This document shows, piece by piece, positions 20,180-53,720 of a DNA stretch of 64,000 bases (its first letter is position 1; each line of letters starts with the position of its first letter). The notes under the pieces were generated by a model that had not been told where the DNA came from, ran no database searches, and worked only from the letters and a program-made list of their open reading frames with translations. The position numbers and the translations under genes are program-made. This stretch comes from Perkinsus marinus ATCC 50983 (taxonomy: Eukaryota; Perkinsozoa; Perkinsida; Perkinsidae). The DNA is taken from positions 910,802 through 974,801 of the forward strand of contig NW_003206658.1 in assembly GCF_000006405.1 (NCBI RefSeq), written 5' to 3'.

Positions 20180-20188
20180 TGGTTATTT

Positions 20189-20196
20189 AGGGGGGC
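20189..20196 (+). promoter_or_regulatory. Polypurine tract of element A
   Basis: AGGGGGGC, followed by TGTAA and the 3' LTR at 20202. This is the expected place for plus-strand DNA priming. Confidence 0.75.
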
Positions 20197-20201
20197 TGTA
20201 A

Positions 20202-20472: not shown

Positions 20473-21607
20473 CCTCATGTCTATCATCCGATGTACTGCT
20501 GCTGCTGCCAACAATAATATGTACGGCCTCACTTACTGTCATCACCTAGTTCATTATCACGTGGTGTCACATCTTAACATGATGATTGAAAGCTTTGATG
20601 ATGTTTACGCAGTAGACAAGGTTAGTTGTGGGTGCCGCAATGACCGTTTCATGTGGCGCACTACGAAAGATCTTCCGTGACAGTTACAGTGAAAATCATC
20701 GATCAATAGAATATCATGAATTTTGCTCATGACTCATTCGATGGTTGTCCGTGAAAACAGTGAATCCTGGAAATGGTGAACCGGAAAAATTTCCCGTGAA
20801 CCCTGATAACAGTGAAGGAACTTGCGCGCTCCACGAGCGAGCGCCACCAAAATTCAAGTCGAGATCCCCTTACGTCATATATGTTGTAATCGACCGGTTG
20901 GTCTAGCGGTTAGGCATTAAAGGTAGCAGCCGACTGTCCAAGGTTCAAATCTTTTGATCGACATGGCAATTTTGTAATTGAGACGCGGATTATGCTGGAC
21001 CGGGCCTGGGTGCGTGAATATGAGTTTGTGTTCATGAAGATGAGTTTGCGTGCAGGGCTTCATCCAGCGGCTTCACCCGGTGTTATCAAGAGTCTGATCG
21101 AGCGAGTATAAGTGTGCCATAGTTCTATCATTATCTGAGTTATCTCAGTTCTTCTTCGTTTATTTATCTTCGTTCGGTTCGGTTAGAAGATCGGTTCTAT
21201 CGACCTTCGGTCTAACTGTCTTGACTTGCCTCCGTCTTATATTTGTGGTATCGATCGACAGTAACTAAATACCCTACAACCGGCTAGTGCCACTACCGTA
21301 TCACTAAGTTAGCTGGTATATTACAAGAGCTGGAGTCGAGTTGGCTTATCTAGTTATAGCCGTGAGATATCGATTTTGGTACAGGTTCAACCGCGGCAGT
21401 TGAGGACTGTTGCCTGTTCGTATCGTTGCGCAACTGCTCTGTAACACGACTCATGGGGAGGAGACGAAATAAAGACGTATTATTGATAAGGAAGAGCACG
21501 CAAGTACAATAATCTGGCGCTTGCGTGCTCTCCACGTGAAAGAATGAGTGAAGGTTAAAGTCAGAGCTACAGACTATGGCTAGTTGAATCTCGGCTAAAT
21601 GGCAACA
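20473..21607 (-). repeat. Family-B LTR, copy A, remainder
   Basis: Continues the LTR interrupted by element A. It matches 22132-23273, differing by a CTG microsatellite (fewer units here, near 20502) and scattered substitutions. In minus-strand direction the LTR starts TGTTGCCATTTAGCC at 21607. Confidence 0.9.
20890..20961 (+). other. tRNA-like sequence inside family-B LTR (copy A)
   Basis: A 72-nt stretch has an A-box-like TGGTCTAGCGGTTAGG and a B-box-like GGTTCAAATCT at tRNA spacing. Its ends TCGACCG and TGATCGA can pair with one mismatch. A GGTAG/CTGTC stem with a 7-nt loop can form, but the base before the would-be anticodon is A instead of U, and the arms are not well spaced. It therefore looks like a tRNA-derived sequence and is unlikely to be a working tRNA gene. 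Confidence 0.5.
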
Positions 21608-21850
21608 TATCTACGGTCTCCAGATTCAATAGCCAACTACACCTCAAGATCTGACTCTATGCAGGACTTAGCGACATTATGATGAGAGACGGTGGATTCT
21701 CGACCTGACTTGATGTTACGTACTGAGAGACGTCTAACAACACCATCAGAGCCAGGGAGAGTCTTGACAACCCGAGCAGGATTGATAGACTTGCCGCTCT
21801 TGACAAAGATCAGGCTAGGCTTCGATCGTTCCACAGGAGACAAGTAGCTA
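21608..21850 (-). pseudogene. Truncated family-B pol C-terminus
   Basis: Minus-strand frame with VKSGKSINPARVVKTLPGS and GRESTVSHHNVAKSCIESD, nearly identical to the end of the pol frame at 23303. It is cut at about 21810, where unrelated sequence joins it directly to the next family-B LTR. This marks copy A as the 3' end of a second family-B insertion arranged head-to-tail with the next. Confidence 0.85.
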
Positions 21851-23273
21851 TGTGCCTGCGTGCCAGGCAACGTGACTGTGGTGTTAAGCCAATGCACGGC
21901 GTGTTGTGAGGTTCGGTATTATCACCGCCCTCTGCTGCCTATTGGCTTACACGCAGTCTCACCCAACATTCCCAAATAACTAATGCGTTGCGGTGAAGCG
22001 TGCCTTGGTGACTTTCTAAGCACGATACAATGATCCATATGGGAATCATGAATAGAAACCTCGGGTGAAATAAAGGGTCATGAGAAGGTGGTGAGGGTTC
22101 GAGTTATACCCAACCCATGGTATTATAACCCTCATGTCTATCATCCGATGTACTGCTGCTGCTGCTGCTGCTGCCAACAATAATATGTACGGCCTCACTT
22201 ACTGTCATCACCTAATTCATTATCACGTGGTGTCACATCTTAACATGATGATTGAAAGCTTTGATGATGTTTACGCAGTAGACAAGGTTAGTTGTGGGTG
22301 CCGCAATGACCGTTTCATGTGGCGCACTACGAAAGATCTTTCGTGACAGTTACAGTGAAGAACATCGACCAATAGGTTATCATGAATTTTGCTCATGACT
22401 CATTCGATGGTTGTCCGTGAAAACAGTGAATCCTGGAAATGGTGAACCGGAAAAATTTCCCGTGAACCCTGATAACAGTGAAGGAACTTGCGCGCTCCAC
22501 GAGCGAGCGCCACCAAAATTCAAGTCGAGATCCCCTTACGTCATATATGTTGTAATCGACCGGTTGGTCTAGCGGTTAGGCGTTAGAGGTAGCAGCCGAC
22601 TATCCAAGGTTCAAATCTTTTGATCGTCATGGCAATTTTGTAATTGAGACGCGGTTTATGCTGGACCGGGCCTGGGTGCGTGAATATGAGTTTGTGTTCA
22701 TGAAGATGAGTTTGCGTGCAAGGCTTCATCCAGCGGCTTCACCCGGTGTTATCAAGAGTCTGATCGATCGAGTATAAGTGTGACATAGTTCTATTATTAT
22801 CTGAGTTATCTCAGTTCTTCTTCGTTTATTTATCTTCGTTCGGTTCGGTTAGAAGATCGGTTCTATCGACCTTCGGTCTAACTGTCTTGACTTGCCTCCG
22901 TCTTATATTCGTGGTATCGATCGACAGTAACTAAATACCCTACAACCGGCTAGTGCCACTACCGTATCACTAAGTTAGTTGGTATATTACAAGAGCTGGA
23001 GTCGAGTTGGCTTATCTAGTTATAGCAGTGAGATATCGATTTTGGTACAGGTTCAACCGCGGCAGTTGAGGACTGTTGCCTGTTCGTATCGTTGCGCAAC
23101 TGCTCTGTAACACGACTCATGGGGAGGAGACGAAATAAAGACGTATTATTGAAAAGGAAGAGCACGCAAGTACAATAATCTGGTGCTTGCGTGCTCTCCA
23201 CGTGAAAGAATGAGTGAAGGTTAAAGTCAGAGCTACAGACTATGGCTAGTTGAATCTCGGCTAAATGGCAACA
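21851..23273 (-). repeat. Family-B 3' LTR, copy B (1.42 kb)
   Basis: In minus-strand sense it starts TGTTGCC (23273) and ends GGCACA (21851), giving TG...CA ends and short terminal inversion. It contains the same tRNA-like segment and CTG run as copy A, plus a stretch (AACAGTGAATCCTGG near 22430) related to the fold-back repeat at 28100. It also keeps the uninterrupted target site of element A near 22133. Only 175 bp of the matching 5' LTR survives, at 26856-27030. Confidence 0.8.
22556..22627 (+). other. tRNA-like sequence inside family-B LTR (copy B)
   Basis: Same 72-nt stretch as at 20890 with a few substitutions (GGTAG/CTATC stem kept). A- and B-box-like sequences are unchanged, which would suit an internal polymerase III-type promoter. 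Conservation may simply reflect recent common origin. Confidence 0.5.
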
Positions 23274-27573: not shown

Positions 27574-27957
<384 letters not shown>

Positions 27958-28355: not shown

Positions 28356-28424
28356 TCATGTGGTGAATATCTTTGGTTTTTGTACCACTCTCCTGGGACT
28401 ATCTAACTTGAAATCACTACTCCC

Positions 28425-28659
28425 TGTCGCATAACTCTCCGCCGGTGTTGAGGAACTCCTCGACGACATGCGGTGACCAATAACACGACACTAAGATCTT
28501 GAGCCAAGATGGCTACAGAACCTCAATACTAGACACTTACAACGAGAAACGTAGGTTCTAAGAACCATACGATTCGCTATATGAGGAAAAGCGCACGCCC
28601 AATAATGCTACGTGCCTCACGATCTCAATACTCTAGTAAATACGTCAAAATACGTCACA
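28425..28659 (-). repeat. 3' LTR of element C
   Basis: Minus sense TGTGACGTATTTTG ... GAGAGTTATGCGACA. A purine tract, TGAGGGGATGAGAT (28660-28673 on the complementary strand), precedes it. It contains the spliced-leader-like motif at 28498-28518. Confidence 0.95.
28498..28518 (-). other. Spliced-leader-like motif in 3' LTR of element C
   Basis: The minus strand reads TGTAGCCATCTTGGCTCAAG; the dinoflagellate trans-spliced leader ends CGTAGCCATTTTGGCTCAAG. These 20 bases match at 18 positions, and the preceding base (C) also agrees. It is not followed by GT, so it is not an SL RNA gene; it looks like a leader fused to the element's 5' untranslated region. Confidence 0.8.
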
Positions 28660-28685: not shown

Positions 28686-31388
28686 TTAAGGAGCCACCTC
28701 ATCTAAGCTCTCTTCTAGTAGGGTGTTTGTGACCTCATCCACTTTGATCTTCTTGACATCCCTCGGGGACAATCTCACAAAGGCTGCGACATTACCGATA
28801 GTTGATAGCTTACCATCGGGACCAATCCATAGTGGTAGAAGTCGTTCATCCAGTAGACGATACTCGTGGACCATATACTGACCGCTACCTGTCCAACGCT
28901 CAATCTTACCGTAATGACTCTTAGAATCTTGTGGATCTTTCCACAATATAAATTTAGTGTGCCTCAGTGAACGTGTAGACAGAGTAGGCTCTACAGAAAG
29001 CTCATCGTCAGTGATCTTGGGGTTTTCGTCGTCATTATAAAGTCCATTAGGAAGAAAGGCGTTCAGGTGATCAGCACTGTAGAGCTGGGAACGGTTACCA
29101 TTAGACTTGACTTCATAACAACGGGAACCGACCCTGCGTATAATCTCACCTTCCTGCCATATACGGTCGAATCTGTGGCTCGGTTGCGTCCATACCAAAA
29201 CCTTATCTCCCACATCGAACTCGTTCGGTTCGTTAGCCCGCTGCGGCGTACGCTCTTGCCAAAGCTTCCTCCAGTCCTCCACAATCCTTTCCCTCGACTT
29301 ATCGACTCTAGGAAATCTGGTAAACCGGCAGGCCTCACAAGACTTAACAATGCGTTTAATATCAGAACGAGCCTTGGGCCACCAGAAATTCGACATTATT
29401 AATCGATAAGTATTATTGATACCAATGTACCCATGTAATATATGAAAATAGAGAATAATTTCTTTAATGAATAACGGAGCACAAGCACTTCGTGGTAGAA
29501 CTATTTTAGGAGAATCATCATAGTACTTAGTACTAGTCTTAGTTAAAATCTTACAAAGTAGACCATTCACGACCATCATATGCTGCGCATACTTTTGGAT
29601 ACGAATAGATTCATCGTGAAGAACAGATACATTACTACTTAATACACGGAAAGTAGCAGCAGCCATGTCATCACGTTGCTGCTGAGATTGGATGAACCTC
29701 AATAAATAGTCATCACAATTGTTAATATGTTTATGACGCCATCCCTGGAAACACTCATTCAGCAGAATAAAGCATCTATAAGTAGGCAGATTATCAATAG
29801 TAGATAATGAGATTGTACAGCATTCTGGATGAGACTCAACGACAGATGGAAGTCCTCGAATGTCTCTCGCAGGAATATCTTGATTTATCCTCGAGAGCAA
29901 ATATGGTTGAGCATTTCGATCAGCTGATACATGAGTGAAGCGAACAAAGATCTTATACGAACGAACAAGTCTTAACATATCAAGACAGCACTCACGTAAT
30001 CGAGAGGTGGATAACCACTCTACTCCTTTCATCTTATGAGGGCGATCATCTAGTCGTCGGATCGCCGTAGTAGAATCACTCGAGAGAACGACTGACTCCA
30101 ACTGTGGGAAGAAACCATCGAGCAATGAAGAATAAAACTGCCCCAGAGAGCTGCTCAGACAGAAAAGTTCCCTCCTATTTGCATGCCAGAAACGAGCACA
30201 GGTAGCGAACAGGTGAGAACGCGCACAAAGGATTATCATATGCGGAATCGCAGCTTCTGTGGTGTCAGAAAGTACGGTAGAATACCATACAGATGCAAAC
30301 CCACAGTTCGAGGCATCATTCTCTATCACGAGAGACTTAACAGTGGAAAATAAGGGCAGCTCGAGAGGAATACGTGCTCATGATTCTACAGCAGCATTTA
30401 AATGCTTATTCACCTCCTTCTTGATGTCAGGAGGCAACACATCATCGAAAGCTATACTCTGGGACCCACTCACTCGACGGGCCCAATCACAATGCGCTCG
30501 AGCCTGTACTTCTTCTAACGATTGACGTAGATCTAGGAAGCGACCTGCTTGACGAAAGACCTCACGTTTAGTAGTGGAAACCGTAAAATTATTCACCGGT
30601 GGCTTCACGCGTAAGACACAGCCGTCCCACGCCCAGTAAGCACCCAGCCACTTGGAGTACTCATCTCTCCATACAGCTTTCTTCTCATACGGAATGTCGA
30701 ACCCCGCCAAATCCAACACTTTATAGAGTGTAGCCTCGAACTCATCCAAGTGTACTTTTGACGACACCACAACGATATCGTCCATCACTCTGAGAGTACG
30801 CACCAAAGTGTGGAATCGGTCGAGTATACTCCATAGTAGGTCCAATGAGTGCTCTAAGGCCCCTGGGCCTATCGCCAGCCCGAAGGTTAGGCGAGAGCTC
30901 CTCATTTCTATACCACGACCATAATTGATATAGACTGGCCTCACAATGGCGAGCCTATAAAAGGCCTTCGCCAAATCGTATTGGCGAATCTCCACAGACG
31001 GCGTAATGATGGAACGTAACTGCTGAGTAATACGACCGATGCTGTGCTTACGGCTCGATGCGACTGGTGCTCGTAAATTGAGTATCCTGGCATCTACAAC
31101 TGGCCTAATCCTCGTAGATTTAGCCATCGATATTATTGGAAATGCCTTGGCCCTATCCCTCGGCACTTCCTAGTCAGATACTCTCTCCCACCAATGGCGA
31201 TTTTCATACATTTTTAGCTCATCTAGCCAGAGCTCATACTGGTCAGGACTGAGCTTCTGCAACAATCTATTCAGAGACCACGACCGTTGCTCATTCGCAC
31301 TCTCGACTTCCTCCCAATCTACTAGAAATCGATACTCTTGCGACGGCGTATCGCGAACATCATCGGTTTCTAATTTAACCAATCGCAT
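28686..31388 (-). pseudogene. pol: Element C pol: RT, RNase H, zinc finger, C-terminal barrel; integrase core missing
   Basis: A single frame runs from 31388 to 28686, broken only by a TAG at 31170-31172 and a TGA at 30378-30380. RT: RPVVDARILN, QYDLAKAFYRLAI, FGLAIGPGALE, RVMDDIVVVSS (a VMDD catalytic box). RNase H follows (IENDASNCGFASVW, RRELFCLSS, VLSSDSTTAIRR, FTHVSADRNAQPYLLSR). The integrase HHCC finger is present (HILHGYIG ... CEACRFTRF), but then the frame passes directly to a post-core segment (VDKSRERIVEDWRKLW, FDVGDKVLVWT, GEIIRRVGSRCYEV). The DDE catalytic core of about 150 residues is absent without a frame loss. The tail resembles the relic at 1-617. Confidence 0.88.
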
Positions 31389-31521: not shown

Positions 31522-33581
31522 TTAAACTCGGAAATTCCAACTCGGACTCCGCCGAGCTGTACTCCTTAATTTCACTCTCTGGTGCTTCAGAGTAACCGCC
31601 ACCTCATCGCCTGAGACTGAGCATGCTATCGTACCATTAAGATGCACACCACTGCAATCAATCCTCTCTGGATTGATAATATCCACTGAGGATATCTCCG
31701 AGAACTCGTAGGACCCATCCTCTTCATTGAGAGACGGTACCGTCCTATTACGCGAGCTCTCTGACTCCCTGGATGCTTCCAATAACTTCGATCGGATCTT
31801 TCCCAAGGCTGTCTCATCATCAAATCTATAAACGAGCTTCGCACCGCACAAGCGCAACGCCGAACTTCCTAAGATGAGGTCGTATGATAGCCCATTTGCT
31901 ATCAAGAATGGGAGAATCAATTCTTTATCTCCTACTCGACACAGAACGATCGTCTCTTCCGTGATCATTTGTGTTTGATTATTGGCAAACACCGCTCGCA
32001 GAGGAGCAATACTTTTTCTACTCAACTTCAAACGCTTGGCGAGATCCCTATTGATCAACGCCAGAGCCGATCCGCTATCCACAAGCGCGTCGAAGACTTC
32101 TCCTGCCAGAGTCACTTTACATGTACTAGGGGGACATGCCGTTGCTAACGTAAGAGACTTCAACTCCTTCGGCTCCTGTTCGGCAACAGATGCAATATCA
32201 ATCAATCCCTGATCGATGTCGACTGCCATCGCTCCTCGACTGGTGGAGTTGTTCGGTCTCGCATCACCGCTCGTAGCGCCCATACCCTGGACTCTGCTAG
32301 ACTTCTCATTTTGTGGATTGGGATTTTTCCTTGGACAATTACGAGCTACATGCCCAAATCCTCTACAATGATAACATTGCAAAGATCCTTTCGCACCGTT
32401 GAGGCCCTGACTCGCTCTCAATTGGGGTGGTTTAGAATCACCCTCACGGCGGATCGATCCTGGCCCTTGCCCCTTGCCAGCACCTTTCCCCGTGACTAAA
32501 GGCTTCGAATCTTTATAATCTTTCTCATAAAACTCTGCTGCATCTGCTATCACTGATAGAGGCTCGCTATACAACTTGGGACCGAAATATTGTTCCAACT
32601 TCACCACCAGACCACCGGGTAAACCCCTCAAAATCTGATTTCGCACATCACTACTACTGAGACTTGGTAGAGTCTCCCCGAGCTCCTGTACACGACCACA
32701 GAAGGAATTGACGCTTTCATCACTCTTCTTGAAAACTTTTCCGAAATTACTCACAGCTCGCCCTTCACTCCATAAATTCGCAAATTTCTCATCTAATCGC
32801 TCCCACAACATTTCGGAAATATCCCCTTGTAAACCATTATCTTCCAATTCCGTCAACTTCCCCAACTGCTCTTGGCAGTATGTTTTGGCTCTACCGACCA
32901 AATTTCTGCTCAAATAGTAACACGCCAACGGACCCTTCAACTGATAACTCTTACAAGCCGATCGAACTCTCTTCTTAAATATATCGTACGTCATAAACAC
33001 ATTATCAGCATTTTTCCCGTCTACGTCCCAAGGAGCAGCTTCTACCAGAGGGAGACTATTTAACTCTATCTTATTTTCGATCCAATGAGCAGGAGTCATT
33101 TTATTCTTCGAATCACTCCCCTCGATACCCAAGACCACCAACAATCGTGCGAGCATCACCGGATTTCTTTCCGTGAAGCACGCATCAAGAGCTGATATTT
33201 TCACTAGTGATCTCATCACTCCCAAGCTCAAACAGTACGCTAACTCCTGAGCTCCCTCTGTCAGGCCACTATCCAAAGTGCACCAATATAGAGCCGCATA
33301 TATCGAACGCCAAACATCACTATAGTTCGTCACATTCGCATCCCTCGCGACCTCTCGGAAAACTCTTTCAATGCAACGGCCCCCTTACGTATCAAAACCC
33401 CGATCTTAGCCCGTGCTCTCACCTTGTCATCAACAGCTAGGAGTCGGTCTACTATGTCGCAGACTTTCTCGGACACTCGCTCATCATCGGGCTGCTCTGC
33501 TTGCACGTTCCGTAGGCCCTGCATCGACCACCAATTTGTCGCATAACTCTCCGCCGGTGTTGAGGAACTCCTCGCCGACAT
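31522..33581 (-). pseudogene. gag: Element C gag and protease
   Basis: The start MSARSSSTPAESYATNWWSM is at 33581, inside the 5' LTR. This first frame runs to about 33340 and then shifts to a 604-codon frame (33333-31522). Features there: a gag helical region, KGKGQGPGSIRRE linker, CCHC knuckle CYHCRGFGHVARNC, then an aspartic protease with FDALVDSGSALALI and a downstream YDLILGSSAL. The frame ends about 130 bases before the pol frame resumes, so gag-protease and pol are separated by a further phase change, decay or a programmed shift. Gag would form the particle; protease would process it. Confidence 0.85.
33518..33533 (-). promoter_or_regulatory. Candidate primer-binding site of element C
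   Basis: Three bases after the 5' LTR the minus strand reads TGGTGGTCGATGCAGG, close to the element-A site. It also encodes part of gag (NWWSMQG). Confidence 0.55.
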
Positions 33582-33771
33582 GCGGTGACCAATAACACGA
33601 CACTAAGATCTTGAGCCAAGATGGCTACAGAACCTCAATACTAGAGACTTACAACGAGAAACGTAGGTTCTAAGAACCATACGATTCGCTATATAGGGAA
33701 AAGCGCACGCCCAATGATGCTACGTGCTTCACGATCTCAATACTCTGGTAAATACGTCAAAATACGTTACA
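33537..33771 (-). repeat. 5' LTR of element C
   Basis: Same ends as the 3' LTR. It holds the gag ATG (33581), the spliced-leader-like motif (33610-33630) and, upstream of both, GGGCGTGCGC, a block also found upstream of the leader motif near 53620. Confidence 0.95.
33610..33630 (-). other. Spliced-leader-like motif in 5' LTR of element C
   Basis: Identical to the motif at 28498-28518. Its 3' end lies 28 nt upstream of the gag ATG, the layout of a trans-spliced mRNA 5' end. Confidence 0.8.
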
Positions 33772-33903
33772 CTCCCTCTCTGGCTGTGGAGTTTTCGAGT
33801 GTTAGGCTTGCTCGAGGAAGGCTACATGAGACGTGCGCGAGGTGGGGTCAGACTCAAATTGGACATAGATGCGGGGTTCCCGCATTTGAGCGTGCTCATA
33901 TTT

Positions 33904-34239
33904 TGTGCTGACCCTCAGGCAGCGCAAGATTCTATGTCGCTCGCCTAGAATCTAACCGTTTCAATCAAAGGCTTTATTGGATTGTATATCAAACTTGAGA
34001 CTGTTTGGATTACGTCCGCCTGATCCTTACGACCTACCCGTTCGTCTACTCTGGTAGTCTATCATCGATCTCTATTTGTGATCTCTATCTCGTCTACATA
34101 TAGAACTGTATCTTATCTGTATTATCTATGCATTCTATTAGTGAGTCGCCGCAGTTTGTGTTATGCAGCCGTCGGATTCTGGGTTTAGTTCTAGTGAACG
34201 CTTTACATCTGTGCAATCTACTTCGCACATCGAACCACC
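33904..34239 (+). repeat. 5' LTR of element D
   Basis: Starts TGTGCTGACCCTCAGG and ends ATCGAACCACC. Contains the gag ATG at 34163 (77 coding bases in the LTR). Confidence 0.9.
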
Positions 34240-37211
34240 CTCCAGAAATTCTGAAATTTCTGGTATCTGGTCACGCCCATTGTCCGCACATTCTACCGGG
34301 ATTTCCTACCGAACCTCTGCGTTCGCTATGTCGTCATCTATGCCTCAGCTTCTACCTGCTGGATCTAGCTCCAGCTCGGCAAGCTTATCTTCTTCAAGAA
34401 GGTCTTCTATGCTCCGCCATCGTTCTCTCCCCTCGAGAACACAAGAAGTTCGAGCCCGTTCTACTGTCTATGACCACGACGATCCTCAAGGAAATCTACC
34501 GTCATCTTCCAATGATGATATGGTACCTCAACACTCTACTGTTGGGGCTGGTCCTGAGATCTACGTTGAGCACAACGATGTTCTAGTTCTACCTGTGAGT
34601 AATGGTATCTCTGGTTGTCTGGACGACAAGGTTAACGACAAGCATTCTATCGGTTCTATCGTAACTGGTAACTCTAATGCTCTGTTTAATGGTAAGGACG
34701 ACTCGTCTTCCGGCTACCCTGATCGGATGCACTGCACTCCGACATTCGGCAACGATTCTTCTAGTGCTGTTCCTATCTCCGATGGTTGCGGTCTACGTGG
34801 TTCACCTATTAATCTGGGTACTGTCTAAATGACTGGTGTCACTAGAACGCCGACCCCTGAAGCCTCTACTAAGAAGCGTGCTATTAGCGCTACTCGTCAT
34901 TCCTCTAGTCTGGTGATATATCTGATGCTACTAATGGTAAGTCTGTATCTACTCCCAAGAATGATAACTCTGGTGATGATTCGGTTCCTCAACCTTCTGC
35001 TTCGTCGTCTAGTGGGTTTAAGACTATTGAGGCTGACTCTACTACACCCCTCGAGGGTAATGGTGATAGTTCTAATATATCGGGTAATGATGATCTGGCT
35101 AATTCTAGTAAGAAGACCGTTGCTACTGCTGTACCTTCTGCTGTTAATGTTCTTAATGGTAATGGTATCTCCAGCCCACATCTCAACACTACTGCTCAGC
35201 ACTCTACTGGCCCTGTTAATACTACTATGCCGGTTACTCCTATTGTGCATCAAGGATTGGTCCAGCCCACTAATCCTATTATCGATGGATCTATGGTTTC
35301 TACCCTATTCCTGTTAACCCTTTTCCATCTAATGTGCAATCAAGTGTTGGTGCCTCTAATTTCCAATGAGGCTACATGCCTGGCCCTAATGGGGGCTTAT
35401 CTCTAGTCCCCTATTCGGTTGTTGGTTCTCCATCTATGATGCCTTCTATGCCTATTGGTGTAACTGGTACTAATACTACCGGCGTTGGCCACGGATTACA
35501 AAAACCATCTACTCAAGGCCCTCTATCCCTGGACCACTATCAAAGCGGTCAGGTTGCTTCTCGTGCTTCTCGCTGTTCTAGTCGCTCCGTTCGTGAGTCT
35601 CCGTTTTTGCCACTCTAGGGACTCCGGCCATGGGTCATCTAGGAGTAGGGAAGATCACATCTCTGTTGCATCTAGCCAACATGGCTCCCGCTGTTCTAGA
35701 GCTTCTGAGTCCTCTAGGGACAAGGGTTCCTCTGGTTCTCGCCATTCTAGGCGACCTTCTTGGAAGACTCCTAAGAGTGAGGGTTCAATGGTTCACGCTA
35801 CTCTCGTCGTCGTGAAGATTCTAAGCATTCTCAAGGCTCTAAGTCTTCTACGTCTTCGAGAAGATCTTCGTCATTATCTGGCGACGGCGAACTTCCTCGT
35901 CAATCTCCATCTAATGTGCCCAAGACCGGTCTAGCTGATGGATTTGTCCCAACTTCCGCTCAAGGTGGTCTCTATGGTAATCGCTTCTATCAACCCCCTA
36001 ATCGTGCTCCTCCCTCTTACGATGCTATCTGTCCGGGTTGCGGTTCTCAACCCTGTCGAGCTAAGATTTCTACTAAAGAATTCGAAACCGCCAGGTCCAT
36101 CGCCGAGAAGAAGCCTTTAAAGCCTATCTTCAAGGGAGAAGGGGATTCGAGAAGTGGTTCTACTATTGTTAGAGAGATCGACTTTGTTTAAGAAGGCCAT
36201 GATGCGGTCACTCGGTATCCATGGGCTAATAATAATATTGAGCCCTCTACTTGGTGCAAGCTCATCAAGGGTACTCAACCCCCTGCTAAGTGTTATCTAG
36301 ACTATGAGAAGCATCTTGAGCGTCTACAGTGTCAACTCCGTTCTCTCTACGATGATGAAGATTGTATTGCTAAGGCTAAGGTTTCGTTCTTCATGTGTGA
36401 GCAAGGGACTTCTGAGTCTCTATCTGACTATGTCAAGAGACTAGAATCTACTGTTACTGAGCTGCATCTAATGGGTATTATGACTTACGAGTATGATATG
36501 AAGAGAAGACTATATGATGGTCTACAGGCTGATTATCTACGCGATAAGGTAGACAAGGAGTCAAGTGATTCTACTATTACGTTCGATAAGTTTGTGCGTC
36601 TACTGACTGGCTATGAACGTCCTCGATTGGGTAGAGTCCGCCGTCAGAAGGTTAATACCGTCGTCGGCGATGTCGACGATGACTCTAGCTTCGATGCCCA
36701 CGTCTATGCTGTTGGTGCCGACTCTATGTCTATACAATTTTATCGCTGCACCGGGGTTGGTCATCCTGCTAGACTCTGTCGAGGCAAGGTGAGCAATTTA
36801 AGCTCAAGGTGCCACAAGTGCGGTAACTCTAATTATGTTACCGATCAGTGCAATGTTTCTGACAAGAGTCTCTATTGTCAGAGATGTCGTAAGAGAGGAC
36901 ATCTTTTAGTTGAGAGCAAAAAGAAGCCTGTCAAGGACGAGCCCTCTACGCCGACTCCTAGTGCTAAGGTTACTAATCCTAAGACCAGGGCCCATCTAGT
37001 CTCACGTGAGGATGCTGAATTCTACCTTAGAGTCTCTACTCTAGAAGGTTCAGATTCACAGTGCTCTAAGTATAATGCTCTCCACTCATTGTCTTCCGAC
37101 TCTACGGCAACATCTAGTACGTCCAGCTCTAGAATCTCAATGGTTGTCGGTGATCTGTCTATCTGTGGTACTATCCGGCCAGTACTCTATGATACAGGTG
37201 CAGACGTATAA
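34163..37211 (+). pseudogene. gag: Element D gag and start of protease, several breaks
   Basis: MQPSDSGFSSSERF starts inside the LTR. The 221-codon first frame is Ser-rich and ends at TAA 34826, with the same frame open again after it (MTGVTRTPTPEASTKKRA). Coding then moves among frames through Ser/Thr/Asn-rich sequence (34910-35930). A gag core lies at 36393-36630 (TSESLSDYVKRLESTVTELH, YDMKRRLYDGLQADYL). Cysteine motifs CHKCGNSNYVTDQC and CQRCRKRGHLLVES follow (about 36810-36920), then the protease start RPVLYDTGADV at 37175-37211. Protease sequence continues to about 37440 (NGSTLSVLGNVELEVG, PVIMGLSTMAKL) after a stop. Confidence 0.8.
34242..34263 (+). promoter_or_regulatory. Hairpin at the expected primer-binding position of element D
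   Basis: Three bases after the LTR lies a perfect 8-bp stem (CCAGAAAT / ATTTCTGG) with a 6-base loop. No TGG-type tRNA-complementary site is seen here. The same hairpin is kept in the relic copy at 52688-52709. Confidence 0.55.
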
Positions 37212-37531
37212 CTAATTGCAGTCTTTACACTGCGTCATCTAACTGATAAGGAGCTCCGCTTCGATGATCCTTCGGCTCTCGGTCATATTAGTGTCGCCAA
37301 TGGCTCTACCTTGTCAGTTCTCGGTAACGTCGAGCTAGAGGTTGGATACGGCTCTACATTCGTCAAGGACTCCTTCCTTTTGGCCTCTAATGGACTCAGT
37401 ACTCCAGTCATCATGGGTTTATCTACGATGGCTAAACTTCGAATGTTAACGATCTTCTAAAACTTCTAAACATCATCGGTGGTTCTACTGGTTCTTCTAA
37501 TGTTAACGATCTAGATCTTCTAGATGGTTGC

Positions 37532-39156
37532 TTGTCTGTCAAGGAGATGGATTGGGCTAGGAAGGTTATGGTTATGCAGGTCAGTCACTACTCTAAGGTT
37601 GTGCCATGTCTACGTGATCTAACGGTCAAGTCTTCTTTAACTATCGAGTCCCTTGCTAGAGCCAACTCTCTAAGTGGTCCGATTGGTCTTTATCAAGATC
37701 TCTATCACGATGCTAAGATTTATCCTACTGATGATACGTCTATTGGTATGGATGATACTCTACTCGTTGATGAATCGGATAGAGAGTCTACAAGGCGTGA
37801 TCAACTTCCTCCTTGGGACGCTATATCTAGATCATGGGCCTACGACTCTAATGCTCCATTAGGTAGAGACCATACTAAGGTCCCCTGGAGGGATGATTCC
37901 CGTCCCGAGTATGATTTCTATTATGCTGCTAAACGTGGTCTAGCTTCTATAGCTAAACTCGACAAGGAGCGTCATTCTATGTTTGAAGGTGCTTTATCTC
38001 AACTTATTGATAAGGGTTTCAGCTCTATTGTTTGTGATGTACGTCAGGGTATCAAGATTCTTGATTCAAGAAGCCTACCAAGTCTATGTGCTCTAAAGCA
38101 TGGTCCAAGTTAACTAGTGGTACTATCTATGAAGGGTGTAATGTTCTTTTACCGGAGCACTATACGCCTTCACATCTAGCCTTTAGACCGTCGCATCCGA
38201 GCACGCCGTGTCGTATAGTTTTCGATTTCCGATCTCTAAATCGACACTCTCTACGTGGTGGTTATCCTCAAAACCACCTAGTTGGTAGTCTATTGGCGAT
38301 ATGCTCTAATCGGTATTTCGTCGCGGGCGACCTCTCTAAAGCATTCTGTAGAATGCAGAGCAATTCTAATGACGTTCCTTATGTTGGCTACACTTGTATT
38401 GGGTCATATGTCGTATCATGGTCTAGAGTTGCATTCGGTTCTAGTGCTGCTCTGTGCCAACTAGATGCGTCTATGGAAGATATTACTCTAGAGATTAATG
38501 CCTTGTGGAAGCTTGCTGCGAAGTTTCCGGCGTCTATCGTGACTATCGCTGACCTGTGTCGAGAAGAGGTAGAAGCTTGTCTTCTACGTCCTTCTGACAC
38601 TGCGTATGACTACTTACTTAGAGCTCCTCCTATATCTAAGAAGGTTATACTTATCAAGTTTGTTGATGATATCTATGCTGGTGGTTCTACCCAAACTGAG
38701 GCTCGTCGGAACTATGATCTAGTGTCATATATGTGCAACGGTCACGATTTTCCGGTGGAAGTTCTAAAGAGTTATGACAATTGGTCTACTCCGAATGATG
38801 GTCTAGCTCTAATGAAACGTCAACATCTACTGGGTCATGACTGTTGCACCAAGGACGATGTCTTCTATTGCTCCTTTAGCGGCTCTATTCCTGGTAATGA
38901 CTCAATTACCAAACGACAGTCGTGTGGCATTCTCGCCAGTTTCTATGATCCTCTTGGTTTGCTCGTCGAGCATGACATGCAGGGGAGATCTATATGGAGA
39001 GATATTAATAAATCTACTCCAACGGATTGGGAAGCTACTATTTCTCTATCTTTGACTAAGGCTGTCGTCGAGTGGGCAACACTCTCTAAAACTCTGGCTG
39101 AATCTAAGGCTCTAACTCGTCATGTACATCTAGATCAACCGCTGCTTCTAACTTAG
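37532..39156 (+). pseudogene. pol: Element D reverse transcriptase
   Basis: Two overlapping frames (37532-38113 and 38086-39156) need one frameshift near 38095. RT landmarks: PSTPCRIVFDFRSLNRHS, YFVAGDLSKAFCRMQ (motif A), AFGSSAALCQ (motif B), IKFVDDIYAGG (motif C, FVDD), then the BEL/Pao post-RT motif ILASFYDPLGLL and SIWRDINKSTPTDW. After a stop at 39154, pieces of the RNase H-like region continue to about 39560 (HVPSNCNASDSISR). Confidence 0.85.
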
Positions 39157-39543
39157 AAGTTCTAAGTACTGATGCACCTAACCTCGAGATCATGCTCTAA
39201 CTGTCGCTGTTGACTCCGAGGCAACGGTCTGTCGGCTGAGAAAGCCTTCTAATGATGATAAGTTGATGGCACCGGAACGACGCCGTTTGGCTGCTGTTCG
39301 TCAATTATGCTCTGATCTGCAAGCGTGCGTCAAACACGTGCCGTCTAATTGTAATGCTTCCGACTCTATTTCTAGGTGTACTCTACCTGAGAAGTTTGAT
39401 GTTACTTTATTATCATCATCTCTAGAAGACCGATGTGTTATATATGATCCTTCTATGACTCACGCGACCTCTACTAAGGACGCGGGGTACCCCCATGCTT
39501 CTCCTAGCGCAACCTCTACTACCTCTATACATCGGGGTACCCC

Positions 39544-41661
39544 TTGGTGGCCTCTGCTCTAGACGACGACTTCTGCTATCATGAGTCTATCACTATTGAT
39601 GATCTTCCGGTCTCACCACTTGATATATCTACATCTGTTCATGCTAAGGTTATGTTGGTTAACTGCGATTGCCTTGATCTACCTAACATATCTGGTCTAG
39701 ATCTATTTGACGTCGAGAAGGAAAAACTAAGACTCCTTCTCGAGTTCGTTGATACTACTAGAGGTATGTCTAACGCTCTTGAGTCCACCTTGGATAATAT
39801 TGAGTTCAAGCAACGTCTAACTGTTTGTGTTCGTCGGTGTCAATCTAATGATGCCGATCTTTCTAAGTTCCGAGACTATCTAGAAAGCAAGGTTTCTCGT
39901 GGATCTATTGGTCTTCGACAGACGGTCTTTCAACGTATGTCTAAGCACTGTTCGCTAGACAATGATGGTCTCATTCGTCAACGGCGCTGGTATAGTTCAA
40001 ATAATAATACTGATCCTGAAGACGGTGGCATTATTTATCTTGATAACTCTAGCTATGCATACCAAGTGCTATGTATCCTTTGCGGTATCTACCATTATCC
40101 CTATGGCCACCCAGGGAAGCGTCGTCTACGATCTATTCTACAGAGGAAGTTTACTGATAGAGATATATGTGTTGCTGTCCGCAAGACCACATCTAGTTGT
40201 AGTTTGTGTCTCCGCGCCAGATCTACTAAGTCTATCAAGTATCTAAATTCTGATGTTTAAGATATGGTTACAACACAACTATGGCAGTTGGTGGGAGTTG
40301 ATATTGTTGGTTCTTATGGTAAGCCACCGCAACAACGATATCTACGACAAAACTCTACCTCTTCTCAAGCCTCTAATCGTTCGATTGGTGATGGTAAGCT
40401 CGATCCCTCTAAGAACTATTATCTATTAGTGTGTCAAGACGCTGTTAGTGACTTTATTGTCGCTAGAGCTATGCGTAACACTAAATCTACTACTGTTGCT
40501 AATACTCTACATTCAGTCGTCTGTGAGCACGGCAGTCCATCTGTAGTTATTAGTGATCGAGATATCTTTTCTATCTTGACTAGGTCGGTACGCTCTGTTC
40601 CAAACAAACACGGTATTAGACAGTATACTCTACCCGGCTACAGTCAACATCTCTCCTTCTGGGAAAGATCTCATCGAGATCTAGTCCAAACATCTAGAGC
40701 TATATTGGCGTCAAGTGCTACTCCTGAAGACTACATCTTCAGTTACCTTCTAGCCGTTCGATGCTATAACAGCACCCCTAGGCACTGGTCTACGCTGAGT
40801 CCATGCGCTCTACATTATGGTTATGGGCAACGTCCACCCGGCGACCCTCCGTCTGACTTCCCCGCTATCGATTGGGACACGCTCGAGGTCAAATATCTGA
40901 ACGTTGACTATCTGCCCTATGTTCGATCCTTGTTGCCGGTTCTATCAGGTCAACAAGAAAAGGTCAAGGTCACAGTTCAAGAGTACGTCGATTCTTGGAA
41001 GCTAAAACAAGCCGCTCTTCGCGAGAATTCTATCAAGGATACTTCTCAAGATTATCAACTGGCACTCTATGACCTTGTCTATATCAGCGAGTGTGCCGAT
41101 CATTCTCTTGCTGGTCATCTATCCCTCAAATTGCGAGGGCCTCTAACGGTTGCTAAGCTATGCGGTACATCTATGGTTCATCTCTTTGACGGTATTGTAC
41201 TACCATCTGACTATGGCGGTAATCTAAAGGTTTCTGATGATGGAACTACTCTAGAAGGTGGCCCTGGGGTCTCTTCTCTCATCTACGCCTCCGTCAAGAA
41301 CCTGGTACCCGCACGTGCTCTACAATCTCCAATCTATGAAAAGGCCTAAGAGTTTATCAGGACGCGGAAGGTAACTTCGATACTTTCCCTGCTAGCGGTG
41401 ATGGTTCGGATCAGTCTAAGATTATTCTAAGACGAGTCGAACAACGGTCTTCTAGTAACCATCAACGTCGACAAGAAGACTCTACCATTTTGCCTGGTTG
41501 TGAGGATGTCCTTCTAGATCCATCTAATCAGGTCATATCAAGTCCCTCCTCATCAATTGACGGAGTGGCTCTATCTCCCCCTCATGATGATTCATTCGAT
41601 ACAACTGAAGACTATGAAGTTGGTACCAATTTACGTTCGTCTCCATCAAGACTATCGGTAT
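39544..41661 (+). pseudogene. pol: Element D integrase and C-terminal region, first part
   Basis: Zinc finger YHYPYGHPGKRRLRSIL ... SCSLCLRA (about 40090-40220), an in-frame TAA at 40258-40260, then the core: LVGVDIVGSYG, VVISDRDIFS, LSFWERSHRDLVQ (acidic residues D, D, E), and a barrel-like region (LYDLVYISECADHSL, LRGPLTVAKLCG). After the stop at 41349 the frame shifts; RLSV at about 41650-41661 is the last element-D coding before the LINE. Confidence 0.83.
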
Positions 41662-42416
41662 GGGAACGAGCTCAGAGACCTCCTCGTGGTGTTCCTGGAA
41701 ACTCAACTATAATGTTTTATTGTTGAGGCGAACATCTGAGCATTCGATTGTTTCCTCTCTGTTTCCTTATACAATTTGTTATTGCTTTGTTGATTTGCTT
41801 CTCGTTTTGTCACGTCTCTAAATCCTTGTTATTTCAGTCCAACTGAATGGGTCCGATTATGGTATTGGTCCGACATACATATGTATGGTAAGTTATGCAC
41901 ATGTATGTTCTGTTTACTGTTCATTTGAAGTTGCCTTGTGTTGCGGTAATGATCGGTTAGTCACCTGTTTGGTGCACTAATGGTTGTGTCCCCGTGTTGG
42001 GGGAGTTTGCTCGGTGTTGAACGAGTATGCGGTCGACAGTTGTCGGAATCCATGTGTGGTTGGATGGTCGATCCCTAATTAGGGGTAAATGTGTTGTGTG
42101 GTGGATAAAGGGTACCATTGTCAAGTCGGTAGATTCGGGTGGTGCGACGCTAGATTTGTGTAAACTACTATCTTTTCGCGTACTAAGTAATCGTGATGAT
42201 TCTTAATCACATACATGTTTATCATAAGTGTTGTTATTCTTTCGCTTTACTTTGTTTGTTCATTTGCTCGTTTATTTTGTTTGATTCATCTTCATGGCGA
42301 TTTCGAGTTCCAGCCGCCTCTGAGTGGCGTTATGCTTGAATTGCCCTCGTATTCTGTTTATCCTTTGTCTTCAGGTTCCTGTTTTTTTGTTTTAAAATTA
42401 GGATGAACCGTTGTTG

Positions 42417-43031
42417 ATGTCGACGTTTTCAACTGCTCCAGATCTGTCTGGGACCATAGTTGAGACATTAGCTCAACCACCCTTCTCGGTTAACTCTTTG
42501 AGAACGTTGAAGGCAGCGGTTGATGATGCCGAGTTGTTGGGAGGAATGGTAGTTGCTTGTGCTGTCGCTATGGGTGCTGTATTGGATAATGATGCCGAAC
42601 AGCCTCAGGCTGATATTATCGCTGTGAGACTGAGAAGAGCAAGACTCAGAGCTGCGTTGATTGCCGCTGCTTCTCAAAAAAAGGATGTCGTAAAGGCGAA
42701 GTTCTCTGTGGATGCGAGACTCGTGTCAGCTGGACAGTTATTTGGTTGTTTACCCAATAATGAACTGGTTCCTCTTCCGCATGTTGCGGAGGTCTTGTCT
42801 CGAGATAGATATTTATTTATTGAATTTGAGACTTATCCTGAGATCACCGCGGCGGCCAGGAAGTCTGTTATACAGTTTACTCTAGATGGTCAAGCTGCGG
42901 AGACTGCGAAACTTCCCACGGGGCGCTCGCTAAGGGACAGGTTATGGCAAACAAATTCTGGGGAGTCATGGAGAGCTGGGGTTTCCCAGAACGAACAAGT
43001 CGGGACAGTAGCCACCAGCACTCCAGGATAA
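42417..43031 (+). CDS. Unrecognised 205-residue protein in LINE (ORF1 candidate)
   Basis: Starts MSTFSTAPDLSGTIVETLAQ. The middle is alanine- and arginine-rich (VRLRRARLRAALIAAASQKK), followed by VDARLVSAGQLFGCLPNNEL and FIEFETYPEITAAARK. No zinc knuckle, RRM or coiled-coil hallmark of known ORF1 proteins is evident. It is the first open frame of the LINE and ends just where the ORF2 3' remnant begins, so an ORF1 role is a guess. The frame is intact across more than 600 bases, unlike most of the window. Confidence 0.5.
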   Translation: MSTFSTAPDLSGTIVETLAQPPFSVNSLRTLKAAVDDAELLGGMVVACAVAMGAVLDNDAEQPQADIIAVRLRRARLRAALIAAASQKKDVVKAKFSVDARLVSAGQLFGCLPNNELVPLPHVAEVLSRDRYLFIEFETYPEITAAARKSVIQFTLDGQAAETAKLPTGRSLRDRLWQTNSGESWRAGVSQNEQVGTVATSTPG

Positions 43032-43453
43032 AGCATAGACTCGAGAGAGTTAAGGATTACGTGACAGTCCGTATGGTGTCTACCTTATCACAGAGTTTGC
43101 AAAGAACACTGCGAAGTTCAAGACAAAGAGAAATTGTCCGTATGGTAGTATCGTACAGAAATAATGGAGCATTCCTCCAGTTGCTCTCCGGTCACTCTAC
43201 CTTACTAAGAGGATATAGATATGGACCTAGCTACTGCTGGGGTTCACATGATGAGAATTGCTCTCATTGCCATGTTAAAGAGACCAGTGAACACCTCCTG
43301 CTCAAGTGCACAAGACCAGATCGGTCACGTTTGCGTCCGAATTACGTGGACGGGAGCGGAACTCTTGGGCAAATAACAATTAGTGTGAATCGATGCACGG
43401 CTATGGCGAGCTTCTGTGAGAAACTGACCTTCAAAAATGCGACAAACCCGTGA
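42944..43453 (+). pseudogene. LINE ORF2 C-terminal cysteine motif
   Basis: The last 169 codons of a LINE polyprotein. SRQREIVRMVVSYRNNGAFL is followed by CSHCHVKETSEHLLLKCTRP, the C-x2-C ... H ... C finger that closes many APE-type LINE ORF2 proteins. Its beginning overlaps the end of the 42417 frame in a different phase, marking the internal deletion junction near 42950. Confidence 0.8.
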
Positions 43454-43803
43454 TATGAGGGAACGCAACTAGAAGTATATGCTTCTGCCATCGAGAGTGA
43501 TAGTCTCGGGTGAGGGATGACTTATGCTAGGGTACGGATTTTTCGAGTCTCGGAGATGATGCTTGTGGTCAACACACTGTGGCGAGTGCTTGTGTTCCGT
43601 GGTCGTACACAGCCCCCGCAGTCGTGTAAGCGGATCCTGCCGAGAGGAAAGGAAGTACATTGGCAGAGGTTATCTCGCCCTGTGGACAGAACCCATTGGC
43701 AGGATGAAAGTAGACAATTTAAAAGGCCAAAACTGATCCCTCGTGAGCCAATGTGCATTGACGCGAGTCTAACTAAGCCGTGTTGTCGGCGTCGGACTTT
43801 AAA

Positions 43804-43834
<31 letters not shown>
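43804..43834 (+). repeat. (CA)n 3' tail of the LINE
   Basis: About fifteen CA units end directly at the right target duplication, as a simple-repeat 3' tail would. Confidence 0.9.
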
Positions 43835-43836
<2 letters not shown>

Positions 43837-43843
43837 TCGGTAT

Positions 43844-44154
43844 CGTCAAAACATCCGTCTTCAACCGTTGAGACCATTACCCCGGTTAGACAGGAGACAG
43901 CAGCTTCAACTAGACGTGTGGATAATGTTCTAGTGTTTGGTAAACCTATTCCATCTTCTGTCACGCCTCACAATGGTTGGTTGGGTATCTCAAATGATAC
44001 ATCTATTTATCTTGGATCGGCTTCTATTGAATGCTATACTGCCAACTCGGACTCTTTATGTCGAAGCCCTGTTACTCTCGTAACAGATATATCTGGGGCG
44101 TTGTCCACTTCCAATGAGTTTCTCTACGAGGTGTCTCGTACTAAGGTGATTTAG
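43844..44154 (+). pseudogene. Element D pol C-terminal tail, after the LINE
   Basis: Frame SSKHPSSTVETITPVRQET ... LVFGKPIPSSVTPHN ... TISGALSTSNEFLYEV-like, ending with a TAG at 44152. It continues the 41490-41661 frame once the LINE and one target duplicate are removed. Bases 44155-44592 are untranslated and lead to the 3' LTR. Confidence 0.7.
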
Positions 44155-44592
44155 ATAACGTCCTCTACTAGACCTCTAACACGCTCTCTTCTAGAACGTA
44201 CTAGTAATTTGCTAGACCGGCTACAACTCTAAAGGACTCTAACTATGATTTGGCCCAACTTCGTTCTATCACCAACGATTACTATGAGGAGGATAAGAAC
44301 TCTATCTTGGATTAAGTGGCCTAGGACGGTTAGTGACCGTGGTCTATCTATTATCTATCAAGTGGTATAAGGAAATGCTCTAGTAGTTAGTATCTACGAT
44401 TGCATCCGCTATGACGATATCTATATTGGTATCACTATCGATGTCTCTTATGACATCCCTACTTTTTCTCTATAGATCATAGGCTAGATTCGTATACCTA
44501 TATTGTATTTGTCTGCTTTATATAGACAATTAAGGTATGGTCTATGAGATGGTCTCTACAGATGTGTCTAAACACGGACCATCTACGGGGTA

Positions 44593-53039: not shown

Positions 53040-53720
53040 CGAGGCGCGCGCTAGTCCCTTGACTGTTTATAATCCTATCGTGAGATTTTTTCCGGTTCGA
53101 TTCACTGTTATCATGACCACCCTTCGATTGTCTTGTGAGACGTTTTCACCTCGGCCTCCGGCTGTTAACGTTAGTTTAGCTCGCCCTTCCACGCCACGGT
53201 GGAGATGATGCACGAGTTTGCTTTTAGCTGCACAGCTCGTGGTCATCTCGCAGTACAGGCTCGTAGACCTCACCATACCTACGGCCCTATCCTGGAACTG
53301 GACATCGGTGGCCTACGACCTCCGTCGAGATAGTCTCCGGTTCCTGGCTTACGGGCCGCAGGTTTGCAGTCTGGTCTTTCGGTCTGTGTTACGGTCGGCC
53401 GACTCGGTTGGTTTGGACGGTTCCTCAACGCGACTAGTACTCATGTGAAAATGGAGAGTATAAGTACAGACTTGAGCCAGATGGCTACGGATCTATCTCA
53501 CATGCTTATAGTATCAATTTAATTAGCAACAATGACAACTCTAACACTTAATCTCAGCATCATATATCTATCCTCTGGCCTTCCTGCCTGCCGTTACTCA
53601 CTGGAGCATTTCGCGCACGCCCGATAAGAATAGCAGATCATTCGGTGCCGCGACACTGGGCTTCTGCTGCCCTCACCCGAACTCTGTGGTCGTAGGAAAT
53701 GTGCGGCTTTTCCAACTAAT
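53040..53720 (-). mobile_element. Relic LTR and gag start with spliced-leader-like motif
   Basis: The minus strand shows a block TATCGGGCGTGCGC (near 53620, compare TATTGGGCGTGCGC in the element-C LTR), then a leader-like motif at 53471-53490, 26 bases, and ATG at about 53444 opening MSTSRVEEPSKPTESADRN. This frame stops after about 30 codons. The layout copies that of the element-C LTR (U3-like sequence, leader motif, short spacer, gag-like ATG), so it is probably a related family's 5' end. The other parts are missing. Confidence 0.5.
53471..53490 (-). other. Spliced-leader-like motif
   Basis: The minus strand reads CCGTAGCCATCTGGCTCAAG preceded by T. Relative to the dinoflagellate leader (CGTAGCCATTTTGGCTCAAG ending) it differs by one missing T and one T-to-C change. 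No GT donor follows, so it is not an SL RNA gene. Confidence 0.8.

What the first reader, a model, noticed from the sequence alone, without database searches (positions are those of the whole stretch)
33537..33771. Spliced-leader-like sequence built into the LTRs of retrotransposon C, 28 nt before the gag ATG
Both LTRs (28498-28518, 33610-33630) carry TGTAGCCATCTTGGCTCAAG on the element's sense strand. The dinoflagellate trans-spliced leader ends CGTAGCCATTTTGGCTCAAG, so 18 of 20 bases agree in order. The motif is followed by a 28-nt spacer and the gag start, exactly like the 5' end of a trans-spliced mRNA. Inference: an ancestral element RNA was trans-spliced, reverse transcribed and the leader became a fixed part of R/U5. 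The element may now supply its own leader, with no need for trans-splicing, or may use it as template-jump homology with cellular mRNAs.
Basis: partly seen in the sequence, partly recalled or inferred. Interest (0 to 1): 0.9.

Follow-up and report, generated by a model that had tools for sequence, protein, structure and literature searches.

The report
Spliced leader built into retrotransposon LTRs
In what looks like the oyster parasite Perkinsus, many different families of virus-like jumping genes carry the cell's own mRNA leader sequence inside their terminal repeats, apparently as the joint at which their copying machinery jumps from one end of the RNA to the other.

Summary
Both LTRs of a minus-strand Ty3-type element carry a 22-mer matching the Perkinsus marinus spliced leader (SL) at 20 of 22 positions. 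In the same genome 105 fetched SL copies are not SL RNA genes; their upstream flanks form 25 groups, 10 with paired LTRs, most pairs near-identical. Flanks of 18 representatives share nothing upstream and little downstream; the shared part begins at the mature leader's first base. Of 33 copies with a long frame behind the leader, 28 start it 11-40 nt later.

LTR mosaics meet at the SL: two elements with dissimilar gag share a U3 (83%) up to the SL and nothing behind it; others share only the downstream side. SL position 3 flips between otherwise identical LTRs. A few copies show AG-bounded joints, the known mark of repeated trans-splicing. I read the SL as the start of R, used for first strand transfer; trans-splicing versus transcription starting at the SL is not settled.

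Against: within two families the SL decays as fast as its flanks; only 17 of 150 integrase places have an SL nearby; no RNA was examined. A 2011 paper listed these sequences without calling them LTRs.

The parts
33537..33771 (-).
   Evidence: 96.6% identical to 28425-28659; TG..CA ends
28425..28659 (-). 3' LTR of the same element
33610..33631 (-). spliced-leader sequence in the 5' LTR (TCTGTAGCCATCTTGGCTCAAG); proposed start of R
   Evidence: host leader from PMC9399869 and PMC3101222
28498..28519 (-). spliced-leader sequence in the 3' LTR; proposed acceptor of the first strand transfer (inferred)
33632..33771 (-). U3 part of the 5' LTR (boundary with R inferred)
33582..33609 (-). 28-nt spacer between SL and ATG
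33579..33581 (-). ATG of gag, inside the LTR; the frame runs 83 codons to a stop in this copy (L001), 326 codons in copy C70 (L002), whose LTR is 97% identical
33772..33776 (.). target-site duplication CTCCC next to the 5' LTR
28420..28424 (.). target-site duplication CTCCC next to the 3' LTR
31522..33333 (-). gag/protease open frame: CCHC zinc knuckle, aspartic protease
   Evidence: Pfam PF00098, PF13975, PF00077
28686..30329 (-). integrase open frame
   Evidence: Pfam PF17921 Integrase_H2C2, E 3e-13
33515..33536 (-). stretch directly after the 5' LTR, where a primer-binding site would lie; not confirmed
   Evidence: sequence; one guessed tRNA pattern gave 0 hits
53387..53655 (-). single LTR of another SL family (U4), 95.5% identical to the LTR of element C197; short-type SL at 53471-53491

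Best explanation
These are Ty3-type LTR retrotransposons whose R region begins with the host's spliced leader. Shown by sequence: the SL sits at one anatomical place in LTRs of many families with dissimilar U3s, the shared part begins at the mature leader's 5' end, mosaic LTRs meet at it, and its cap-near position 3 is a change hot spot. Inferred mechanism: the element RNA is capped with the host leader by trans-splicing (at least from time to time) at the AG that ends the LTR's own leader copy or at a nearby AG. Minus strong-stop DNA therefore ends in the complement of the leader and can pair with the leader copy kept in the 3' LTR. The first strand transfer takes place there, on the same RNA or on the RNA of another SL family. 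This renews the leader, keeps it like the host's, and lets U3 and U5 modules be exchanged between families with the leader as common adaptor. An LTR element in a trans-splicing host faces the problem that its RNA's 5' end is not encoded in cis; encoding the leader in the LTR solves it.
For: (1) 18 representatives of upstream groups: mean information 0.014 bits/position over the 29 positions before leader position 1 and 0.25 bits over 30 positions after the SL, against 1.86 bits at SL positions 4-22 (the last is high partly by choice, since places were found by the SL pattern; the flanks and position 1 were not in the pattern); first leader base T 10, A 6, G 2, C 0 of 18. (2) 18 LTR pairs contain the SL; 15 of 18 pairs are at least 99.7% identical in aligned bases. 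(3) Mosaics: U2a and U2b elements share U3 at 83% over 155 nt ending at SL (score 145; shuffled maximum 27) with no downstream match, and their gags do not match at E 1e-3; D3 and D5 show the reverse. (4) Position 3 changes 6 times on the U0 tree (0 of 168 flank columns reach 6) and 2 times each in U3, U5, U2a (3 of 214, 1 of 353, 0 of 245 flank columns reach 2); L051 and L040 LTRs are identical in all 168 flank bases and differ at position 3. (5) Trans-splicing marks: L033 SL + CCATCTTGGCTCAAG (joint at the SL's internal GTAG), L043 versus L019 SL joined at the next AG (TGCGAG/TTTCG), L099 SL + TAGCC...; the first is the truncation described for dinoflagellate relict leaders (PMC3229502, passages). 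(6) L102 carries the short leader in a long-leader family; against L062 it has 2 substitutions and no gap in 354 flank bases. (7) PMC2868825 (passages): P. marinus leader cDNAs are usually incomplete, ascribed to 5' modifications; [quoted passage not shown]
Against: No RNA was examined. PMC3101222 (section 16) made 3' RACE and RNA blots with primers that match this very LTR and found no clear product. Within two families the SL core decays at the flank rate. Only 17 of 150 scored integrase places have a same-strand SL nearby, and three other LTR elements in the window, two with LTRs 97.9% and 99.5% identical, have none within 4 edits in their LTRs, so an SL is not needed for LTR replication in this genome. 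AG-bounded marks are few (3): L033 is a copy rearranged just downstream, and L099's joint is at an AG only if the older leader read CAG. Other stubs (L065, L082, L104, L092's last piece) do not sit at an AG. Indels in general are not enriched at the SL (10 in about 390 columns versus 93 in about 1970). In D3 some 7-8 nt before the SL are shared as well, so that seam is not exact. Both C234 copies found lack the last bases of the SL. The tRNA primer was not identified. L102's change could be a one-base deletion.
Confidence: 0.58

Rival explanations
1. Self-supplied leader: transcription starts at the LTR-encoded SL, so R begins there, but trans-splicing plays no regular part. The SL was captured in the past and is kept because it helps translation or because it is R.
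For: Also explains the sharp left edge, mosaics and the position-3 hot spot. Tandem leaders are rare: searches for a leader followed by an inner-AG-truncated one, up to 2 mismatches, found 1 long-type and 0 short-type places, whereas regular use of the inner AG would stack leaders.
Against: AG-bounded joints (L033, L043, L099) and a long-to-short leader change (L102); no upstream signal at a fixed distance in 18 representatives (maximum 0.58 bits; 95% limit of random shifts 0.66).
Confidence: 0.22
2. Frozen relict: the leader entered ancestral elements by retroposition of a trans-spliced RNA and now has no function.
For: Relict leaders in retrogenes are well known in this lineage (PMC3229502, PMC6050394, passages); within two families the SL decays at the flank rate.
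Against: Pol stretches of SL families that match at all are about 24-40% identical and U3s are unalignable, yet young copies keep the 19-nt core; a functionless motif should not survive that. Mosaics meet at it.
Confidence: 0.08
3. DNA-level role: the SL is a promoter or binding element in the LTR (a promoter motif inside the dinoflagellate leader has been proposed for retrogenes, PMC6050394 section 7).
For: Fixed place before gag; no other shared motif upstream.
Against: The proposed TTT(G) motif is not in the Perkinsus leaders (CATCTTGG, CATCTGG). It does not explain the edge at the leader's cap base, the tandem leaders or the position-3 hot spot.
Confidence: 0.07
4. Rapid U3 turnover alone makes the SL look like a seam, without strand transfer between families.
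For: D3, D5 and D10 groups share the downstream side and differ upstream, as fast U3 evolution would give; in D3 some 7-8 nt before the SL are shared.
Against: U2a/U2b shows the opposite: U3 kept at 83%, downstream side and gag without a match.
Confidence: 0.05

Closest known systems
Ty3/gypsy (Metaviridae) LTR retrotransposons
   Same: LTRs TG..CA, 5-bp target duplication, CCHC knuckle, aspartic protease, H2C2 integrase
   Different: The LTR holds the host's spliced leader at the proposed U3/R border, and gag starts inside the LTR a few tens of nt later
Relict-leader retrogenes of dinoflagellates (Slamovits and Keeling 2008, as cited in PMC3229502 and PMC6050394; original paper not read)
   Same: DNA-encoded leader upstream of a coding frame; truncated second leader at the inner AG in L033
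   Different: Here the leader lies in both LTRs of elements and recurs in many families; it is not a passive tag of a single insertion
'SL-like' genomic sequences of P. marinus (PMC3101222)
   Same: Primers PmaSL-L1-like-F1..F4 and LongSL1a/s are letter-for-letter in this LTR; PmaSL-L2-like-F1 and shortSL2a/s fit families U1 and U4 (compared by eye)
   Different: The authors retrieved over 100 and judged them not to be functional SL RNA genes; 'transpos' does not occur in the text
Cer1 of C. elegans (PMC3315495, passages)
   Same: Ty3-type element in a trans-splicing host; a short spliced Cer1 RNA can carry SL1
   Different: The full 8-kb Cer1 RNA was not trans-spliced at that site; nothing in the passages seen says the LTR encodes SL1

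Membership tests
Ty3/gypsy LTR retrotransposon (window element) | paired direct LTRs with TG..CA and target-site duplication | tested here: met
Ty3/gypsy LTR retrotransposon (window element) | gag knuckle, protease, then integrase, in Ty3 order | tested here: met
Ty3/gypsy LTR retrotransposon (window element) | reverse transcriptase and RNase H domains | tested here: inconclusive
   ORF 30378-31166 has no Pfam match. Open frames of other SL families give weak RT, RNase H or rve matches below the curated cut-offs
Ty3/gypsy LTR retrotransposon (window element) | tRNA primer-binding site after the 5' LTR | tested here: inconclusive
   one guessed tRNA pattern, 0 hits
SL RNA gene | SL exon followed by a GT donor and SL intron | tested here: not met
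   the element has ATCTTAG after SL; 8 fetched places do have the intron GTAGATATCAG or GTAAATATCAG
Relict-leader retrogene | reverse-transcribed host mRNA, not an LTR element | tested here: not met
   gag/protease/integrase domains and two LTRs
trans-spliced RNA | element RNA starts with an SL donated in trans | not testable with these tools
   no RNA data at hand

The most novel reading that the evidence does not exclude
The host's spliced leader is itself the start of the R region of a large, diverse set of Ty3 elements: each replication cycle takes the first bases of R from a host small RNA in trans, and the leader acts as a universal adaptor by which distantly related retrotransposons swap their promoters.
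Probability: 0.5. Interest if true: 0.92.

Novelty: new variant of a known kind. Interest (0 to 1): 0.82.

Why it matters
LTR retroelements need the same R sequence at both ends of their RNA. In a host that replaces RNA 5' ends by trans-splicing that should fail. This offers a concrete answer: the leader is written into the LTR and serves as R. It would be a case where part of a mobile element is supplied each cycle by a host small RNA, would explain many of the 'SL-like' sequences in print, and gives a route by which LTR promoters spread between families. It also warns that counting genomic leaders as retrogenes in dinoflagellates and perkinsids may count LTRs.

Tried and rejected
Motif conservation within families: a first count and a correction for the 1-mismatch search (12 copies with a core change, 27.9 expected) suggested that the SL core is protected; both rest on copies chosen by the motif. 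Copies found by LTR similarity show no protection, so I dropped that claim. The query was meant to be the whole U1 LTR but my coordinates gave the SL and what follows; its hits were used as such, so the SL was part of that query.

CpG decay as the cause of position-3 changes: it predicts C to T and, on the other strand, G to A at position 4. CAG and CGG occur at position 3, and position 4 shows 0 changes in the four families, so it does not suffice.

Indel hot spot at the SL: not found in general. tRNA primer by one guessed pattern: 0 hits. Viral contigs: exact search for the 19-base core of the long Perkinsus leader found 0; for the dinoflagellate leader 1 contig, of which I read 601 bases. 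Chance: excluded by 76 and 38 places against 0 in the controls. L100 as a hybrid of an SL RNA gene: only about 10 nt upstream are shared, not pursued. L101 as a long-to-short switch: too diverged to say. The clustering was distorted by N runs and was replaced.

Full report
OBSERVATION. The 20-mer is present exactly twice in the window, once in each LTR of a minus-strand element, with 0.00 expected by chance. The LTRs are 235 bp, 96.6% identical, TG..CA, with a 5-bp target duplication CTCCC. The element has a CCHC knuckle, an aspartic protease and an H2C2 integrase, so it is Ty3-type; the gag frame of this copy meets a stop after 83 codons. gag's ATG lies inside the LTR, 28 nt after the leader.

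WHOSE LEADER. The window is part of a 54.5-Mb assembly of 347 contigs, unnamed. It holds SL RNA genes of two kinds, long (L017, L018, L035) and short (L078-L081, L096), each followed by a GT intron. Their sequences and several LTRs match P. marinus primers in PMC3101222 letter for letter, by eye, so I take the host to be P. marinus or something very near (inference). The published leaders are ACCGTAGCCATCTTGGCTCAAG and ACCGTAGCCATCTGGCTCAAG (PMC9399869, passage). The LTR copy differs from the first at positions 1 and 3 only.

HOW COMMON. 76 places match the long and 38 the short leader with at most one mismatch; the backwards control gives 0. I fetched all 76 long and 35 of the 38 short places; three further places in an array on C102, the contig of SL RNA genes L080 and L081, were not fetched. 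A scan of the fetched DNA gave 115 leaders: 8 are SL RNA genes, 2 are second copies in tandems, 105 remain. By similarity of their flanks these make 25 upstream and 26 downstream groups (9 of the 25 upstream groups are single copies); the score limit was 50, the largest score of 2000 shuffled pairs 27. I compared 18 same-strand pairs: all are direct repeats with the leader inside, 15 of 18 at least 99.7% identical, and they cover 10 of the 25 upstream groups (for L108/L109 and L033/L034 the repeat ends were not cleanly found). Of 107 places examined, 33 have a frame of at least 80 codons starting with an ATG within 160 nt of the leader; in 28 of the 33 the ATG lies 11-40 nt behind it, in 5 (U5, L056, L058) 77-127 nt; the longest runs 493 codons to the end of the DNA at hand. 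Four of five internal stretches taken from other families are open over 3.5 kb.

EDGE. Aligned on the leader, 18 group representatives share nothing upstream (0.014 bits per position), nearly everything in the leader (1.86 bits at positions 4-22, partly by choice since the leader was the search pattern) and little downstream (0.25 bits). The base at leader position 1, which was not in the pattern, is T, A or G in 18 of 18, as in dinoflagellate leaders. So the shared piece is the mature leader, whole, from its cap base to its splice site. Pol stretches of SL families that match one another are about 24-40% identical; U1, U2a, U4, U7, U8 and U0, U3, U10 form two sets without a match between them at E 1e-3, though different parts of pol were at hand.

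SEAMS. U2a (L063 type) and U2b (L024 type) have the same U3, 83-84% over about 155 nt, ending at the leader; behind the leader nothing matches, and their gags do not match each other at E 1e-3: U2a's is nearest to U8 and U1, U2b's weakly to U11. D3 shows the reverse: the same 5' UTR (88-96% over 44-52 nt) with three upstream groups, although 7-8 nt before the leader are shared too. D5 has two upstream groups; D10, with U11 and U14, is weaker because much of the match is the stretch after the LTR. Other one-sided pairs (L054, L098, L114) break a few bases to tens of bases away from the leader and were not counted. Exchange at the leader is what strand transfer between RNAs of different elements would give. 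Fast U3 evolution alone does not give the U2 case.

POSITION 3. In trees made from the flanks only, leader position 3 changes more often than any flank column in U0 (6 changes; flank maximum 4 of 168 columns; 21 copies) and U2a (2; flank maximum 1 of 245; 6 copies), and as often as the few most variable columns in U3 (8 of 10 copies, the two C234 copies dropped for their gap) and U5 (6 copies). These trees are small and include both LTRs of some elements. LTRs identical in 168 flank bases differ there (L051 versus L040). None of the 8 fetched SL RNA genes has T there. PMC2868825 (passage) reports that cDNA copies of the leader are usually incomplete, which its authors ascribe to 5' modifications that hinder reverse transcription. 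A cap-near error hot spot fits a leader that is the 5' end of the copied RNA.

TRANS-SPLICING MARKS. L033 has leader + CCATCTTGGCTCAAG, a second leader cut at the inner AG, the form described for relict leaders in dinoflagellate mRNAs (PMC3229502, passages); its sister LTR L034 has one leader, and L033 is rearranged about 27 nt further down. L043 (and its partner L044) has its leader joined at the AG that lies 6 nt further down in L019. L099 has leader + TAGCCATCTGGCTCAAG, an AG joint only if the older leader read CAG (an assumption). L092 has two full short leaders and a stub. L065, L082 and L104 carry 6-7 nt stubs that are not at an AG. L102 carries the short leader within a long-leader family; against L062 it has 2 substitutions in 354 flank bases, though a one-base deletion would look the same. 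Searches found one AG-truncated long tandem and no short one in the genome, so stacking is rare: either the usual acceptor is the leader's own final AG, which leaves no mark, or regular trans-splicing is absent.

RESULTS AGAINST. In two families sampled by LTR similarity (U0: 17 of 25 hits, leaving out the reference, three copies identical or nearly so and four hits without the SL region; U1: 33 of 35 hits, leaving out the reference pair), the core changes at the flank rate (17 of 321 versus 135 of 2440; 48 of 565 versus 521 of 6108). Of 150 scored H2C2 integrase places (218 candidates), 17 have a leader on the same strand within -7 to +4 kb and 2 only on the other strand. Three other LTR elements in the window (about 14560-22132, 33904-44928, 45019-52650) have none within 4 edits in their LTRs. 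Published 3' RACE and RNA blots with primers that match this LTR gave no clear product (PMC3101222 section 16). Both C234 copies lack the last bases of the leader. Indels are not enriched at the SL. No upstream signal at a fixed distance was found, which says little for or against.

READING. The leader marks the 5' end of R. With trans-splicing (preferred, 0.58) or with transcription from the leader itself (0.22), the 3' LTR's copy is what the strong-stop DNA needs to pair with. Steps shown: place, edge, seams, hot spot, a few AG joints. Steps inferred: RNA 5' end, trans-splicing as a regular event, polyadenylation downstream of the leader, the strand transfer itself.

LITERATURE. Nine completed searches of the open library, with capped listings in most, listed no paper whose title or abstract start describes a spliced leader inside LTRs. 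I saw passages of PMC3101222 (plus section 16), PMC9399869, PMC3229502, PMC12014239, PMC6050394 (plus section 7), PMC2868825, PMC9550989, PMC4558846 and PMC3315495, none as a whole. Slamovits and Keeling 2008 was not read, and subscription papers are mostly not held, so prior description cannot be excluded.

Noticed in passing
window 53387-53655 (-): A single LTR of another family (U4) with a perfect short-type leader; the bases before it end in CAG and the bases after it begin with CAG.
   Followed up: yes
window 45019-52650, 33904-44928, 14560-22132: Three further LTR elements (Ty3; Pao-like by a weak Peptidase_A17 match; another with RT, integrase and CCHC domains) without a leader in their LTRs. 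How their RNA ends work in a trans-splicing host is open.
   Followed up: partly
G000 C228:8612/13193 and C247:32368/36949 (L124-L127): Inverted pairs of U1 LTRs, about 4.6 kb apart in both contigs, sharing a leader variant CCACCTT.
   Followed up: no
G000 C281:23155-24286 (L128): Three LTR-like units with leaders in a tandem array about 565 nt apart.
   Followed up: no
L131 (IMGVR_UViG_3300045993_001077) 2746-2766 and 2893-2913: A viral-collection contig with two exact dinoflagellate leaders 147 nt apart, one of them 45 nt before an ATG; could be a virus or retrogene of a dinoflagellate or a mixed assembly.
   Followed up: no
window 27574-27957: A simple (AAT)n array of about 380 bases, some 470 bases from the element's 3' LTR.
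   Followed up: no
L082, L104, L065, L092: Short stubs (CTCAAG, ACTCGAG, GCTCAAG) directly after a full leader that are not at an AG; I have no explanation that covers them all.
   Followed up: partly
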